Shown piece by piece: positions 9,128 to 36,767 of a stretch of DNA of 44,627 bases. The DNA is from Caulobacteraceae bacterium. GTDB taxonomy: Bacteria > Pseudomonadota > Alphaproteobacteria > Caulobacterales > Caulobacteraceae. The stretch lies in the NCBI GenBank assembly GCA_947475845.1, contig CANJMO010000014.1:1-44627 (forward strand), in the 5' to 3' direction. A program made the translations under genes and the position numbers. The first letter of the stretch is position 1; each line of letters opens with the position of its first letter. The notes beneath the pieces are model-generated. The model was not told where the DNA came from, did no database searches, and saw nothing but the letters and a program-made list of their open reading frames with translations.

Positions 9128-9130
9128 TCT

Positions 9131-9312
9131 TGCTCTCGCGGGAGAGACCGGGCCTTGAGTCCGGAGCCGAAGGCGCAACCACCCCGGAAACGCTCAGGCA
9201 AAAGGACCGCGCGGGCTAAGTCACGCTGGAAAGTGGCGGCGTCAGGCCGCACGCCGACGGAGCAAGGGCCTTTCACAGGCTCGGAATCTCTCAGGCCCAA
9301 GGACAGCGGGGG
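9131..9312 (+). promoter_or_regulatory. Tandem glycine riboswitch
   Basis: Two glycine aptamers are arranged in series. Aptamer 1 (about 9131-9212) has GCGGGAGAG, GCCGAAGG and CTCAGGCAAAAGGAC in order. Aptamer 2 (about 9222-9312) has a CGCTGG stem start, CGCCGACGGAGCAA and CTCAGGCCCAAGGAC. These are the conserved cores of the gcvT-type riboswitch, which normally turns on glycine catabolism when glycine binds. It lies directly upstream of gcvT-gcvH-gcvPA-gcvPB, exactly the expected regulon. Aptamer boundaries are approximate. Confidence 0.95.
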
Positions 9313-31225: not shown

Positions 31226-31993
31226 TTAGTCGAGCGTGCGGCTGAAAATCCATTCCTCTGGGGTGGAAAGGCCCGCTTGATAAGCATAGCCGGCGACCTT
31301 GAAGTCTTTGAGACCCTCGGGCCGGTCCAGCCGCTGGTCGATGGCGTAGCGGGCCATCAGGCCGCGCGCCTTCTTGGCGTAGAAGCTGATGATCTTGCTC
31401 TCCCCGCCTCGGGTCTCCTTGAACTGGCAGGTCACCACCGGCAGCGTCAGCGCCTCGCGGTTCACGGCGCCGAAATATTCCTGGCTGGCCAGATTGACCA
31501 GGGTCGGATCGCCCTGCCCCTCGGCGGCAAGGTTGAGCGCCTTGGCGATGCGGTCGCCCCAGAAGGCATAGAGGCTCGGCCCGCGCTTGGTCTTCAGCCG
31601 CGTCCCCATCTCCAGGCGATAGGGCTGGATCACGTCAAGCGGCCGCAACAGGCCGTATAGCCCCGACAGGATGCGCAGCCGCGCCTGGGCATAGGCCATT
31701 CCGCCCTTGTCCAGCTCACGAGCCTGCAGCCCGGCGTAGACGTCGCCGTTGAAGGCCAGAGCCGCCTGCAACCCGTCCTCGCTTTCGGGATCGAACGCCT
31801 GGAAGCGCTCATGGTTGAGCCGGGCCAAGTCGTCGGAGATCGACATCAGCCGCTTGAGGTCGCTCTTGCGCAGCTTGCGGGTGACCTTGGCCAGCTCGGC
31901 GATGTCGGCGGCCATCTCGGGCGTGGTCGCCCCCATGCCGCGCGGCGCGGGCGTGAAGTCGAGGGACTTGGCGGGGGAGATGACCATCAGCAT
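31226..31993 (-). CDS. yaaA: Peroxide stress protein YaaA
   Basis: A 255-residue YaaA (DUF328/UPF0246) protein. The N-terminus MLMVISPAKSLDF, the central GLYGLLRPLDVIQPYRLEMGT, the LVNLASQEY segment and KKARGLMARY are family hallmarks. In E. coli YaaA lowers intracellular free iron and protects DNA during H2O2 stress, and it binds DNA. It lies 80 bases downstream of the FAD-dehydrogenase gene region in the opposite reading order and 72 bases upstream of bdhA. A peroxiredoxin gene lies about 3 kb away. Confidence 0.95.
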   Translation of the reverse strand: MLMVISPAKSLDFTPAPRGMGATTPEMAADIAELAKVTRKLRKSDLKRLMSISDDLARLNHERFQAFDPESEDGLQAALAFNGDVYAGLQARELDKGGMAYAQARLRILSGLYGLLRPLDVIQPYRLEMGTRLKTKRGPSLYAFWGDRIAKALNLAAEGQGDPTLVNLASQEYFGAVNREALTLPVVTCQFKETRGGESKIISFYAKKARGLMARYAIDQRLDRPEGLKDFKVAGYAYQAGLSTPEEWIFSRTLD

Positions 31994-32073: not shown

Positions 32074-33483
32074 TTAAAACAGGACTCTGGGATTCATGAT
32101 CCGCTTGGGATCCAGCGCCCTGCGGATCGCCCGCATCGCCTCGATCTCCACCGGCGACTTGTAGCGCAGAGCCTCGACCACCTTCATCGCGCCGATGCCG
32201 TGTTCGGCCGAGATCGAACCGCCCAGATCGGCGACGATGTCGTGCACCACCTCGGCGGCGGCGTCCCGCGCAGCCTCGAAGGCGTCCCGGTCGCCGCCCG
32301 CCGGCTGGGCGATGTTGTAGTGCAGATTGCCGTCGCCGACGTGGCCGAACGCCCCGATCCGGCAGTCGGGCCAGCGGGCCAGCAGAGCCGCGTCAGCGCA
32401 TGTTATAAATTCGGGAATCTTGGACACCGGCACCGAGATATCGTGCTTCCAGTTCAGCCCCTCGGGCTTCTGCGCCGCCGACAGGTCTTCGCGCAGCCGC
32501 CACATCAGTTTGGCCTGGCTGTCAGTCTGGGCAATCACCGCGTCTTGGGCGAAGCCGGCGTCCAGCGCCTCGGCCAGCACCCGCTCCAGCGCCGCCTCGG
32601 CCCCGCCCGGCTCGCCGCTGATGGTTTCGATCAGGATGTACCAGGCGTGCGCGTCCTGCAGCGGCTCGCGCAGGCCGGGGATGTTCTTCAGGGCGAACGC
32701 AATGGACTGGCGCGACATCAGCTCGAACGCCTCGACCCCGCCGGCGCTCTGCTGCTTGGCGATCGCCAGCATCTCGATGGCGTCCTGCGGCTTTCCGATC
32801 CCGACGATGCCCACCGCCCGCGACACCGGCTGGGGGAACAGCTTCAGGCTGGCCGCCGTCACCACCCCCAGGGTCCCCTCGCCGCCGATCAGCAACTGCT
32901 TCAGATCGTAGCCGGTGTTGTCCTTGCGCAGCCGCTTCAGCCCCCGCATCACCTCGCCATTGGGCATCACCGCCTCGATGCCCAGCACCAGGTCGCGCAT
33001 GTTGCCGTAGTGGATCACCGCCGTGCCGCCGGCGTTGGTCGAGATCAGGCCGCCGATGGAGCATGAGCCCTCCGAGGCGATGCTCATCGGAAACAGCCGC
33101 CCTACTCCCGCCGCCGCCTCGCGAACGGTCAGGAGCGTCACCCCCGCCTCGGCGATCAGCACGTCGTCCAGCGGCGCGATCTCGCGGATCGTCTTCATCC
33201 GGTCCAGGGACAGCAGTATCTCGCCCTGCGGCACTTGACCGGCCACCAGCCCGGTATTGCCGCCCTGAGGCACGATCGGCGTACCGGATTCAAAACAGAC
33301 GCCGACCACTGCCGCGACTTCGTCCACGGTCTTGGGCAAGACCAGCAGCGGCGTGGTCCCGCGCCACCGGCCGCGCTCCTCCACCAGCTTGGACGCCAGC
33401 CGGTCCGGATCCTGGCTCCAGCCGCCCTCGCCGAGCATGCCTTTCAGGCGCGAGATGACGTCGGCGGGCACGGAAACGGTCAT
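32074..33483 (-). CDS. FAD-linked D-2-hydroxyacid dehydrogenase (GlcD/D2HGDH-like)
   Basis: A 469-residue flavoprotein of the PCMH-type FAD family. The FAD-binding motif PQGGNTGL is at 72-79. GGLISTNAGGTAVIHYGNMRDLVLG and GGEGTLGVVTAA follow. The C-terminal FAD-oxidase domain carries the metal and active-site histidines in GHVGDGNLHYNI and EHGIGAMKV. These fit D-2-hydroxyglutarate, D-lactate or glycolate dehydrogenases, and the true substrate is undetermined. It begins 24 bases after the b561-Sua5 fusion gene, so it is likely co-transcribed with it. An electron link to the b561 domain is speculative. Confidence 0.92.
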   Translation of the reverse strand: MTVSVPADVISRLKGMLGEGGWSQDPDRLASKLVEERGRWRGTTPLLVLPKTVDEVAAVVGVCFESGTPIVPQGGNTGLVAGQVPQGEILLSLDRMKTIREIAPLDDVLIAEAGVTLLTVREAAAGVGRLFPMSIASEGSCSIGGLISTNAGGTAVIHYGNMRDLVLGIEAVMPNGEVMRGLKRLRKDNTGYDLKQLLIGGEGTLGVVTAASLKLFPQPVSRAVGIVGIGKPQDAIEMLAIAKQQSAGGVEAFELMSRQSIAFALKNIPGLREPLQDAHAWYILIETISGEPGGAEAALERVLAEALDAGFAQDAVIAQTDSQAKLMWRLREDLSAAQKPEGLNWKHDISVPVSKIPEFITCADAALLARWPDCRIGAFGHVGDGNLHYNIAQPAGGDRDAFEAARDAAAEVVHDIVADLGGSISAEHGIGAMKVVEALRYKSPVEIEAMRAIRRALDPKRIMNPRVLF

Positions 33484-33507
33484 GGCCTCGATTTAACCCG
33501 TCGCAGC

Positions 33508-35031
33508 CTAGCCGACAAACCCGGCCGCCCGCCGCAGCCGGTCGTTGACCGCTTCGCCAAGCCCGGTTTCCGGGACGGGAGCGACCGCGATGCCCTTCGG
33601 CTTCAGCTTGTCCGCCTCGCGCAGACAGGAGAACAGCCGCTGGGCCGCCTCGCGCACGTCGCCGTTCGGGCTAAGGCTGAGCGGGCCGTGGAAGCCGTCG
33701 CCGAAGCCGAGGAACGCCTCACCGGGCTCAGGCGCCGCGGCGTTCAGACGGATCGGGGCATCGGGGGCGTAGTGGCGCACCAACCGCCCCGGAGAGCGCT
33801 TGGCGTCGTCGTCGGCCTCGGCGAGAGGCCCGACCACGGCCTCGATCGCGTCGCGCGCCACCCCGCCGGGTCGCAGCAGCCGCACCGGCCCGCCCGGCAA
33901 CACCGCCACCACCGTGGACTCCACCCCGACCGTGCACGGCCCGCCGTCGAGCGAGGCCTGGACGGCGAATCCGGTCTCGTCCATCGCGTCCTCGAAGGTC
34001 GTTGGGCTCGGCCGTCCCGACCGATTAGCGGAAGGCGCGCAGACCGGGCCGCCGAACGCCATCAGCAAGGCGCGGCAGGTCGGATGGCTCGGCGCCCGCA
34101 CGCCCACCGTATCCAGCCCCGCCCGCGCCAGGTCGCACACCGCGGTCACGTCGGTGATCGGAACGACGATGGTCAAGGGTCCGGGCCAGAACGCCTCGGC
34201 CAGCTTGACCGCGCGCTCGTCGAAGCGGGCGAACCGTCGTGCGGCCTCCAGCCCAGTCACATGAGCGATCAGAGGATTGAACCGGGGGCGGCCCTTGGCC
34301 TCGAACAGCTGGGCGATGGCCTCCGGATTGGAGGCGTCCGCCGCCAGGCCATAGACCGTCTCGGTCGGCATCAGAACCAGCCCGCCGTCCTGCAATGCTC
34401 TGGCGCCCTTGGCCACGTCTCCCGGCGAAACCTTCAACGCCACGAACGGGATCGCGCCGAACGGGAGCATGCGGTGCATCACCGGGCCGAGGTTGAACAG
34501 CTGATGCTTGAGCGCGCCCACGATATGCAGGGCCATCAGCCCCGCCGCCGACCAGCCGAACAGATCGTGGGCCTGGGCCGAGGTGCTGGTCAGCGCCACC
34601 TTGTGGCCGAACGACAGGCTCTGCAGGCCCGGCACGTCCGGCCAGGGGATGCCCGGCAGGCCCCAGTTGCGGAAGATCACCGTGGAGGTGTGGATCGGGC
34701 TGGAGGACACCATCATCCAGCCGCTGACCGGCATGGCGATCAGCACCGCGTAGAAGCCCCAGTGGGTCACCCGCGATGCGATCCGCTCCAGCGGCGACAG
34801 CGGTGAGGCGTAGGGCGGCGGCGGATGGGCCAGCCGCCAAGCCAGCCGCACACAGGTCAGCAGCAGGATGGCGATGCCCACCGTCTTGTGGTCGCGGAAC
34901 AGGTCGAACTTGGCAGCCGCCGGTGCCGTGCGCAGCGCCAGCCCCTGATACAGGCACAGCAGCAGCAGGTAGGCGATCAGCCAGTGCAGGACGATCGCTC
35001 CAAGGGAGTACCGATGGAGCGGCCTGTCCAT
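33508..35031 (-). CDS. Cytochrome b561 - Sua5/YrdC fusion protein
   Basis: A single uninterrupted 507-codon frame encodes two unrelated domains. Residues 1-190 are a complete di-heme cytochrome b561, with heme histidines H16 (LHW), H48 (DHKT), H155 (AHDLFGW) and H169 (LHI) across four membrane helices. Residues ~203-507 are a full threonylcarbamoyladenylate synthase, which makes the TC-AMP precursor of tRNA t6A37. That part has MPTETVYGLAADA, KGRPRFNPL, PSANRSGRPSPT, and the Sua5 C-terminal domain after PGRLVRHYAPDAP. There is no linker. An internal start (GTG 34443, TTG 34437 or GTG 34416) is possible but none has a well-placed RBS. It lies between the peroxiredoxin and FAD-dehydrogenase genes. 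Confidence 0.85.
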   Translation of the reverse strand: MDRPLHRYSLGAIVLHWLIAYLLLLCLYQGLALRTAPAAAKFDLFRDHKTVGIAILLLTCVRLAWRLAHPPPPYASPLSPLERIASRVTHWGFYAVLIAMPVSGWMMVSSSPIHTSTVIFRNWGLPGIPWPDVPGLQSLSFGHKVALTSTSAQAHDLFGWSAAGLMALHIVGALKHQLFNLGPVMHRMLPFGAIPFVALKVSPGDVAKGARALQDGGLVLMPTETVYGLAADASNPEAIAQLFEAKGRPRFNPLIAHVTGLEAARRFARFDERAVKLAEAFWPGPLTIVVPITDVTAVCDLARAGLDTVGVRAPSHPTCRALLMAFGGPVCAPSANRSGRPSPTTFEDAMDETGFAVQASLDGGPCTVGVESTVVAVLPGGPVRLLRPGGVARDAIEAVVGPLAEADDDAKRSPGRLVRHYAPDAPIRLNAAAPEPGEAFLGFGDGFHGPLSLSPNGDVREAAQRLFSCLREADKLKPKGIAVAPVPETGLGEAVNDRLRRAAGFVG

Positions 35032-35039
35032 CGCCGGGC

Positions 35040-35528
35040 TCAGCCCTTCAGCTGTTCGAGCATGTAGTCGGAGGCCGAGACGCGGAATTCGCCGCCGGCT
35101 TCGACGTTGAGCTTATCGACCACCCCGTCCTTGACGATCATGGAGTAGCGCTGCGAGCGCGGGCCCATGCCGAACTTCGAGCCGTCCAGCTCCAGGCCAA
35201 CCGCCTTGGTGAAGGCGCCGTTGCCGTCCGCCAGCATCACCACGTCCTCGCCGACATTGGCCGACTTGCCCCAGGCGTTCATGACGAACACGTCGTTGAC
35301 CGAGACGCAGGCCACCGTGTCCACGCCCGCCGCCTTCAACTTGGCCGCGTCGTCGACATAGCCCGGCAGGTGGCGCGCCGAGCAGGTCGGGGTGAAGGCG
35401 CCCGGCACGGCGAACAGACCCACGGACTTGCCGGCGAACAGTTCGGCGGTGGTGATCGGCTTGGGCCCGTCGGCGGTGAAGATGGTGAAGGTGGCTTCCG
35501 GCAGGCGGTCGCCGACTTGGATGGTCAT
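35040..35528 (-). CDS. Peroxiredoxin, Prx5 type
   Basis: A 162-residue redoxin that reduces H2O2 and alkyl hydroperoxides with thiol or glutaredoxin/thioredoxin partners. The peroxidatic cysteine is C49 in PGAFTPTCSARH, with the PxxxTxxC motif complete. The segments NDVFVMNAW and RSQRYSMIV are typical of Prx5 (PMP20-like) proteins. A second cysteine lies in TVACVSV. The start is the ATG at 35528, and upstream codons are not family-like. It ends 8 bases before the b561-Sua5 gene and is divergent from yqgE. Confidence 0.94.
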   Translation of the reverse strand: MTIQVGDRLPEATFTIFTADGPKPITTAELFAGKSVGLFAVPGAFTPTCSARHLPGYVDDAAKLKAAGVDTVACVSVNDVFVMNAWGKSANVGEDVVMLADGNGAFTKAVGLELDGSKFGMGPRSQRYSMIVKDGVVDKLNVEAGGEFRVSASDYMLEQLKG

Positions 35529-35680
35529 GATGTGTCTCCACTCGAACAGGGCCGCCCTATCCACGCCAAATCCCGGCCCCATTCAAGGGCGATTGTGGCT
35601 TTGCCGGCGGCGCGGCTTGAAACCCCGGCGGGATGCAGGAAACATCAAACCATGGACGGCGGCCAATCTCTGAGAGCGCT

Positions 35681-36247
35681 ATGACCGACGGCTTCCTCGC
35701 GGGCCGTCTGCTGATCGCCATGCCCGGCATCGACGACCCGCGCTTCGAGCGCGCCGTGATCCTGATGTGCGCGCATGGCGAGGACCACGCCATGGGCCTG
35801 ACCCTCAACCGCCCGGTCGAAGGCCTGACCGCTCCGGACCTCCTGCGCCGCCTGGATATCCCGGTGACCTTTCCGATGGCCGACGACCCGGTCCTGTTCG
35901 GCGGGCCGGTGGAGCGCGAACGCGGCTTCGTGGTCCATACCGACGACTACGCCTGCGCCGACACCACGGTGCCGATCACCGAGGGCCTGGCCTTCACCGC
36001 CACCCGCGAGGTACTGCAGGCCATGGGCGACGCCCACGCCCGCCCGCGCAAATCGCTGCTGGCCCTGGGTTACGCCGGATGGGGCGCCGGCCAGCTGGAG
36101 CGCGAGCTGCAGGAGAACATCTGGCTGACCTGCGATCCGGACGAGGACCTGCTGTTCGGTCCCGAGCACGAGCTGAAATGGGCGCGCGCCCTGGCTAAGA
36201 TCGGGGTGTCGGTGGAACGGCTTTCGGGTCAGGCCGGGCGAGCCTAG
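35681..36247 (+). CDS. YqgE/AlgH family protein (UPF0301)
   Basis: A 188-residue UPF0301 protein. The family pattern is clear: GRLLIAMPGIDDPRFERAVI, GLTLNRPVEGL, VLFGGPVERERGFVVH, LALGYAGWGAGQLERE and NIWLTCDPDEDLLF. The molecular function of the family is not established, and AlgH was linked to alginate regulation in Pseudomonas. The start is the ATG at 35681. An earlier in-frame ATG at 35633 adds 16 unsupported residues. It converges on the EAL remnant, with a four-base overlap. Confidence 0.93.
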   Translation: MTDGFLAGRLLIAMPGIDDPRFERAVILMCAHGEDHAMGLTLNRPVEGLTAPDLLRRLDIPVTFPMADDPVLFGGPVERERGFVVHTDDYACADTTVPITEGLAFTATREVLQAMGDAHARPRKSLLALGYAGWGAGQLERELQENIWLTCDPDEDLLFGPEHELKWARALAKIGVSVERLSGQAGRA

Positions 36248-36767
36248 ACCGTCGCCCCGCGTGACTTCACCGGGGCCGCGCCATCGACGTAGCTCTCGTT
36301 GAGATAAACCTCGGCCTCCTGCGGCGACAGGGCGGGCGCATAGCCGAAGCCCTGGCCGTAGTCGCAGCCGATTGACAGCAGGTGGCGGGCCATCACTGCG
36401 TTCTCCACGCCCTCGGCCACCACCTCCAGATCGAGGTCGCGCCCGAGATTGACCACCGAGCGCACGATCTTGGCTGAGCCTTCGTTGGGCCGCCGCGCAT
36501 GCGCACCTTCACGGCGATCTCCTCGCCGGGGGTCTGCGGCTGCAGGAATTCCTCCATCAGCGCACGGTCCTGCGGCGCGGCCAGGGCGAGGATGGCGGCG
36601 GTCGAACATTCGGGGGCAAGCGGGCCGAGACCCAGGCCACGGGCGGGTCCGGTCACGCGCAAGCTGTCGCGTTCGGGGTCCCACATCCACAGGACGACGC
36701 CGGCGGCTCCCAGAGATTCCAGCGCCGCGGTGGCGTCCCAGACGAAGCGGTCTTGCCGCCCCGTCAC
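36244..36767 (-). pseudogene. Remnant of a PAS/GGDEF-EAL cyclic-di-GMP protein
   Basis: Reading from a GTG at 36767, about 92 residues form an N-terminal PAS-like sensor segment (GVVLWMWDPERDSLRVTG, ending near VRMRGG). At about 36490 the sense switches to another frame, which encodes the last ~80 residues of an EAL phosphodiesterase: NEGSAKIVRSVVNLGRDLDLEVVAEGVEN, then GCDYGQGFGYAPALSP. The GGDEF domain and most of the EAL core, including the EAL motif, are missing, and the two parts are out of frame. This is an internal deletion with a frameshift. From memory, C. crescentus carries the GGDEF-EAL phosphodiesterase CC3396 near thrC, so this may be its remnant. Confidence 0.8.

What the first reader, a model, noticed from the sequence alone, without database searches (positions are those of the whole stretch)
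33508..35031. Cytochrome b561 fused to Sua5/YrdC (tRNA t6A synthesis) in one frame
A complete membrane di-heme b561 domain (H16, H48, H155, H169) is followed without linker by a complete threonylcarbamoyladenylate synthase. Sua5 is normally soluble and essential, so this fusion would tether t6A precursor synthesis to the membrane and to a redox domain. The neighbours are a peroxiredoxin and an FAD-linked dehydrogenase. I do not recall this architecture being described. The simpler explanation is loss of a stop codon between two adjacent genes, with or without internal initiation.
Basis: partly seen in the sequence, partly recalled or inferred. Interest (0 to 1): 0.65.

Follow-up and report, generated by a model that had tools for sequence, protein, structure and literature searches.

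The report
Membrane cytochrome fused to tRNA-modification enzyme
In a small genus of Caulobacter relatives, the only gene found for a key tRNA-modification enzyme (Sua5) has become the tail of a membrane heme protein, so the enzyme is probably anchored to the inner membrane; it looks like a real, inherited gene fusion rather than a sequencing error, but what it does for the cell is unknown.

Summary
On the minus strand, 35031-33508, one 507-codon frame encodes a complete cytochrome b561 (residues 7-190) and a complete Sua5 (212-504). The Sua5 part is the only PF01300 match in the held 98.67%-complete genome. A second genome of the genus (G025, Kiruna2_bin-3040) has the same fusion, 80-81% identical, no stop, with a 3-nt in-frame indel at the junction; both halves show purifying selection. 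A sequencing error is therefore unlikely. A third species is cut by contig ends. No other fusion appeared in the printed rows for 299 family, 398 order, 337 class and 299 phylum genomes (overlapping sets, cut tables). The source is a Caulobacteraceae cassette: of 94 genomes in 22 genera read directly, 66 have b561, not fused to sua5, upstream of it on the same strand, 55 of them with yceI between and 11 directly beside it. The fusion most likely arose by loss of yceI and the intervening stop. Most likely reading: an ordinary Sua5 held on the cytosolic membrane face by an oxidative-stress cytochrome. Redox control of t6A is unsupported; an internally started Sua5 (e.g. ATG188) is not excluded. 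Membrane-bound Sua5 has a precedent: vertebrate Ato-Sua5 fusions.

The parts
33508..35031 (-). b561::sua5 fusion gene, 507 codons plus stop
   Evidence: same fusion in G025 (L006/L064)
34462..35013 (-). cytochrome b561 domain (residues 7-190): four long predicted helices and a short one, heme ligands H16/H48/H155/H169, also H90 and H176
   Evidence: PF01292 88.7 bits; 5oc0_A by sequence and by fold, E 6e-3, TMt 0.60; conservation; helices
34420..34455 (-). junction, residues 193-204; differs from G025 by one whole codon
   Evidence: low pLDDT
34468..34470 (-). ATG188, best-placed possible internal start for a Sua5-only product (anti-SD energy -7.0 kcal/mol; strongest 10% of random sites begin at -7.1)
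34435..34437 (-). TTG199, near the usual place of a Sua5 start; GTG in the same alignment column in G025; no SD-like sequence (-1.3 and -1.7 kcal/mol)
33865..34398 (-). Sua5 YrdC/TsaC domain (residues 212-389); only PF01300 match in the held genome
33520..33855 (-). SUA5 C-terminal domain (residues 393-504), with H420-Y421
35040..35582 (-). peroxiredoxin (Redoxin family; probable start 35528), directly upstream; also upstream in G025 and G038
32074..33483 (-). FAD-linked oxidase (GlcD-like), directly downstream; a match follows sua5 in the held flank of 54 of 94 family genomes
31226..31993 (-). peroxide stress protein YaaA, end of the cluster; same order in G025 (L064)

Best explanation
This is a genuine gene fusion, found in one small genus of Caulobacteraceae, between an LcoA-type cytochrome b561 and the only Sua5 found in the genome. 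It arose inside a widespread cassette (b561 - yceI - sua5, often with a FAD oxidase) when yceI and the intervening stop were lost. Shown: one open frame, both domains complete, same fusion in two species, selection on both halves, widespread cassette. Inferred: the protein is made full length; four membrane helices place both ends in the cytoplasm, so Sua5 stays cytosolic on a short flexible tether and makes threonylcarbamoyl-AMP for t6A as usual; the cytochrome still moves electrons between membrane quinone and an oxidant. Tethering is probably a tolerated by-product of the shared gene cluster, not a new regulatory link, although the b561 tail has changed in the fused proteins.
For: One frame with both families over cut-off. 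Only PF01300 match in the held genome. G025 carries the same fusion over residues 3-507 with no stop and a 3-nt in-frame indel at the junction. NG86 dN/dS: b561 0.20/0.73, Sua5 0.07/0.77. Of 94 family genomes in 22 genera: 35 b561::yceI in one ORF then sua5, 20 b561|yceI|sua5, 11 b561|sua5 adjacent, 2 fused, 6 yceI only, 20 neither in the flank held. Stretches PTETVYGL, SANRSGRPSPT and HYAP, which I recall as active-site motifs, are invariant in 30 of 30 Sua5 rows. AlphaFold2: Sua5 blocks mostly 82-98, with lows of 64, 44 and 71. Foldseek neighbours are Sua5 structures and superoxide oxidase.
Against: Only two genomes show it, both drafts (G025 is titled a MAG). G025 has no ATG, GTG or TTG between the prx stop and its residue 32, so its start is non-standard or miscalled. 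ATG188 has a moderate SD-like match in both genomes (-7.0, -6.1 kcal/mol), so a free Sua5 could be made. The b561 half lost the aspartate matching E. coli CybB D164, kept in 15 of 15 unfused b561 proteins aligned, and sits on a long branch (0.98). It is modelled with low confidence (block means 37-69). 20 of 94 family genomes show neither b561 nor yceI in the flank held.
Confidence: 0.72

Rival explanations
1. Fused frame, two products: translation also starts inside (ATG188, or TTG199, which is GTG in G025), giving a free 309-320-aa Sua5 (32-33 kDa) beside or instead of the fusion protein. This overlaps with the best explanation as to the gene itself.
For: ATG188 lies behind an SD-like stretch (-7.0 in the window, -6.1 in G025); a start-capable codon stands at column 199 in both genomes. 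In the three unfused g3 relatives tested, sua5 starts in an ATGA/GTGA overlap with the b561 stop and has no SD-like site (0.2 to 1.9 kcal/mol), a sign of coupled translation.
Against: M188 is invariant in 17 of 17 b561 proteins, so b561 alone can explain it. Column 199 has no SD-like site (-1.3, -1.7). No unusual synonymous conservation at 175-192: rank 50 of 433 windows.
Confidence: 0.35
2. The fusion links t6A supply to membrane redox state: the cytochrome or quinone state changes Sua5 activity or location under oxidative stress.
For: Neighbours are a peroxiredoxin and YaaA; b561 lies upstream of sua5, fused or not, in 68 of 94 genomes read; the b561 tail where Sua5 joins has changed in both fused proteins.
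Against: No redox cofactor is known to me for Sua5; flexible junction; co-location in a gene cluster is enough to explain the fusion; no biochemical data.
Confidence: 0.07
3. Assembly or base-calling artefact that removed a stop between two genes.
For: Draft assemblies; 1.2 kb upstream the window's pdeA-like gene lacks about 1.15 kb present in G025 and its two pieces are in different frames, which may itself be an assembly fault.
Against: Two genomes with 80-81% protein identity share the fusion, with a 3-nt indel at the junction.
Confidence: 0.04
4. The b561 half is decaying and serves only as a leader or anchor.
For: Long branch, lost D164 equivalent, no standard start in G025, two other PF01292 matches in the genome.
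Against: All four heme histidines plus H90 and H176 kept in both fused proteins; dN/dS about 0.27 for b561 and 0.24 for residues 3-40.
Confidence: 0.15

Closest known systems
Sua5 / TsaC2 threonylcarbamoyl-AMP synthase (e.g. P. abyssi 6F87, S. tokodaii 3AJE)
   Same: Both domains and conserved motifs, including the HY mutated in entry 6F89
   Different: N-terminus joined to a membrane cytochrome instead of being free
LcoA-BcnA (cytochrome b561 - YceI lipocalin) system, PMC9113575 (passages seen)
   Same: b561 with the same gene-cluster place; the paper reports b561::lipocalin fusions in most alpha-proteobacteria, Caulobacter named, and a role against membrane lipid peroxidation
   Different: Here the part after b561 is Sua5, not the lipocalin; no yceI match in the held stretch round the gene
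Superoxide oxidase CybB (5OC0; PMC11869295, passages seen)
   Same: b561 fold; H16, H48 and H90 align with CybB H13, H45 and H87 (counted by hand); H169/H176 match H151/H158 by spacing
   Different: R35 is A38 and R38 is K41; D164 equivalent is G182; extra Sua5 domain
Vertebrate Ato transporter - Sua5/YciO/YrdC fusions (PMC13316224, passages seen)
   Same: A Sua5-type domain at the C-terminus of a membrane protein
   Different: Transporter of the AceTr family in animals; unrelated membrane domain and lineage
TsaN, TsaD-TsaC-SUA5-TcdA modular enzyme (8IDE; database title only)
   Same: Sua5 module inside a larger fusion
   Different: By its title fused to other tRNA-modification modules, not to a membrane protein

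Membership tests
Sua5 (TsaC2) | YrdC/TsaC domain followed by SUA5 domain | tested here: met
   PF01300 and PF03481 over cut-off; TIGR00057 over cut-off
Sua5 (TsaC2) | conserved motifs and HY of the linker loop | tested here: met
   invariant in 30 of 30 rows; aligns with 6F87; motif roles recalled
Sua5 (TsaC2) | makes threonylcarbamoyl-AMP | not testable with these tools
   needs an enzyme assay
Prokaryotic cytochrome b561 (PF01292) | profile match and four heme histidines | tested here: met
   85.6 bits; H16, H48, H155, H169 in 17 of 17
Superoxide oxidase (CybB) | quinone-site H87, H158, D164 and antenna R35, R38 | tested here: inconclusive
   H90 and H176 present, K41 for R38; A38 for R35 and G182 for D164 (roles from PMC11869295). 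H90 is kept in only 12 of 17 family b561 proteins. C-terminal mapping is by spacing. Not filed as a member
LcoA-BcnA fusion | YceI lipocalin domain after b561 | tested here: not met
   no YceI match in the protein or in the held stretch round the gene; yceI holds that place in 55 of 94 family genomes

The most novel reading that the evidence does not exclude
A membrane redox cytochrome controls the supply of the t6A precursor: the b561 part senses superoxide or quinone state and, through its changed cytosolic tail, sets Sua5 activity or place, coupling decoding fidelity to oxidative stress; the wide b561-yceI-sua5 linkage in Caulobacteraceae would then reflect an older functional bond.
Probability: 0.07. 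Interest if true: 0.8.

Novelty: new variant of a known kind. Interest (0 to 1): 0.45.

Why it matters
If the fusion is made full length, an enzyme thought to be soluble works from the membrane in a bacterium, with no second copy found in the genome. It also offers a series for how a gene fusion arises: a cassette with b561 and yceI before sua5, loss of yceI, overlapping genes, and one frame. And it points to a linkage of sua5 with a lipid-peroxide defence module across Caulobacteraceae.

Tried and rejected
Stop-codon artefact: rejected because of G025. Genus g3 (b561 beside sua5) as direct precursor: I first assumed it, but the Sua5 tree puts g1 next to g20 (95/79, just under the tool's mark) and the b561 tree does not join g1 to g3, g7 or g17, so b561|sua5 adjacency probably arose more than once. 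A first codon comparison was one codon out of register; it was redone and the first numbers dropped. Apparent extra conservation at codons 175-192 did not stand out (rank 50 of 433 windows). A joint alignment of b561 and Sua5 proteins (A3) misaligned the two families and was not used. A Pfam scan of L010 between b561 and sua5 gave nothing, probably a wrong frame; YceI is shown for L053 in that call and by tblastn.

Fusions elsewhere: in the printed rows no other stop-free match begins before residue 180. Several stop-free matches begin at 180-200; of these I looked at G266 (180-507), whose upstream flank has no b561 match, and left others unexamined. Tables are cut, and a fusion with a divergent b561 could be missed. 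The six genome-contig loci other than G025 have b561 and yceI but no sua5 match in the held stretch.

Literature: searches (b561, Sua5, fusion; threonylcarbamoyl-AMP synthase, b561; YrdC, b561) gave 0 papers; only open-licence PMC papers are searched. One search gave PMC10321239 (passages seen; no membrane fusion in them). One search turned up the Ato-Sua5 paper.

Full report
What is there. The minus strand 35031-33508 holds one frame of 507 codons. Residues 7-190 match prokaryotic cytochrome b561 (85.6 bits), 212-389 Sua5_yciO_yrdC (187.4 bits) and 393-504 Sua5_C (76.3 bits); TIGR00057 is over its cut-off. In the held genome (2.65 Mb, 101 contigs, 98.67% complete) this is the only PF01300 match, while PF01292 has three. 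That t6A is essential in many bacteria is general knowledge; I saw only a title to that effect in a reference list.

Is it real? A second genome of the same genus, G025, has the same fusion over residues 3-507, 81% identical, no stop. Its contig is CAIYVC010000085.1, uncultured Caulobacteraceae Kiruna2_bin-3040 (identified by equal contig length and position). The junction differs by one whole codon. NG86 dN/dS is 0.20/0.73 for b561 residues 3-192, 0.07/0.77 for Sua5 213-507, and 0.40/1.53 for the 19 junction codons: both halves are kept and the joint varies in frame. The third genome of the genus, G038, has a b561 piece ending near residue 141 and a Sua5 piece starting at residue 220 on two contigs, so it cannot be judged.

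How rare? With the protein or the two-row profile I searched 299 family, 398 order, 337 class and 299 phylum genomes (sets overlap, printed match tables are cut). Only G000 and G025 match both halves in one stop-free frame; no other printed stop-free match begins before residue 180. G209 (genus g3) matches both in the same frame but with a TGA between, the stop of a separate b561 gene. The one genome-contig scan, built on two b561 peptides, found 7 loci, of which one (G025) covers both halves; the other six have b561 and yceI without a sua5 match in the held stretch.

Where it comes from. For 94 family genomes in 22 genera I read the flank upstream of sua5. The sample is not random: 30 are best matches, 16 best matches, and 48 I picked by genus or as odd rows; most flanks are about 1.5 kb or less. 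Result: b561::yceI in one ORF before sua5 in 35; b561, yceI, sua5 as three genes in 20; b561 directly beside sua5 in 11 (seven g3, two g17, one g7, one g21); fused in 2; yceI but no b561 in the flank in 6; neither in 20 (G038, cut by its contig end, among them). A FAD-oxidase match follows sua5 in 54 of the 94 (36 within 120 nt), and a peroxiredoxin lies upstream in 4: G000, G025 and both g15 genomes. In the three g3 genomes tested the b561 stop overlaps the sua5 start (ATGA or GTGA) with no SD-like site. In the trees g1 does not descend from g3: Sua5 of g1 groups with g20 (95/79), in which 3 of 3 genomes read have neither b561 nor yceI in the flank, a point that leaves the exact precursor open. 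My reading: adjacency of b561 and sua5 arose repeatedly after loss of yceI, and once became a fusion. PMC9113575 (passages seen) reports lcoA-bcnA (b561-YceI) fused in most alpha-proteobacteria and a role of the pair against membrane lipid peroxidation.

How it most likely works. H16, H48, H155, H169 and H176 are invariant in 17 of 17 b561 sequences, H90 is kept in 12 of 17, both fused ones among them. H16, H48 and H90 align with E. coli CybB H13, H45 and H87 (counted by hand); H169 and H176 match H151 and H158 by spacing. H151 as heme ligand and H87, H158, D164 at the quinone site are from PMC11869295 (passages seen). The D164 equivalent is present in 15 of 15 unfused single-domain proteins aligned and is glycine in 2 of 2 fused ones: the tail where Sua5 is attached has changed. 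Four helices and basic loops (read by eye) put both ends inside, so Sua5 would face the cytosol. AlphaFold2 gives Sua5 with mostly high confidence, b561 as four long helices and a short one with low confidence, and an uncertain junction; Foldseek finds Sua5 structures (E 9e-25) and superoxide oxidase 5OC0 (E 6e-3, TMt 0.60). I therefore favour an active Sua5 on a short tether, with no direct redox coupling.

What is open. An internal start cannot be excluded: ATG188 has an SD-like match in both genomes, and a start-capable codon stands at column 199 in both; but M188 is invariant in b561 anyway and shows no extra codon conservation. In G025 no ATG, GTG or TTG lies between the prx stop and residue 32, though codons 3-40 are under selection, so it uses an unusual start or holds a base error.

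Compared with what is known. Sua5 in fusions is not new: TsaN (8IDE, title) and, as a membrane protein, the vertebrate Ato-Sua5 proteins (PMC13316224, passages seen). b561 in fusions is not new (lcoA-bcnA). The pair b561::Sua5 is in no paper found. Verdict: a real, lineage-specific, new domain pairing; function probably conventional.

Noticed in passing
36247-36767, minus strand: pdeA-like gene: PAS_PdeA (118 bits) and the end of an EAL domain (44 bits) lie side by side in different frames. In G025 (L064) the same two pieces are about 1.15 kb apart, so the window's copy has lost its core, or the assembly has.
   Followed up: partly
L006/L064, before the b561::sua5 gene of G025: No ATG, GTG or TTG between the prx stop and residue 32, though the segment is under purifying selection; possible non-standard start or base error.
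   Followed up: partly
L005 and L006 versus 15 unfused b561 proteins: The aspartate matching CybB D164 is glycine in both fused proteins and kept in 15 of 15 others.
   Followed up: partly
L050, L051 (genus g15): A peroxiredoxin match runs up to the start of sua5 (prx-sua5-FAD oxidase), with no b561 match in the held stretch.
   Followed up: no
L065-L070 (sphingomonads): b561 and yceI together without a sua5 match in the held stretch, so the link to sua5 seems to be a Caulobacteraceae trait; not tested widely.
   Followed up: no
9129-9219, plus strand: Glycine riboswitch aptamer, 69.9 bits.
   Followed up: no
33235-34806, plus strand: 523-aa antisense ORF over the fusion gene; I saw no support for it as a gene, a reminder that long chance ORFs occur in this GC-rich DNA.
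   Followed up: no
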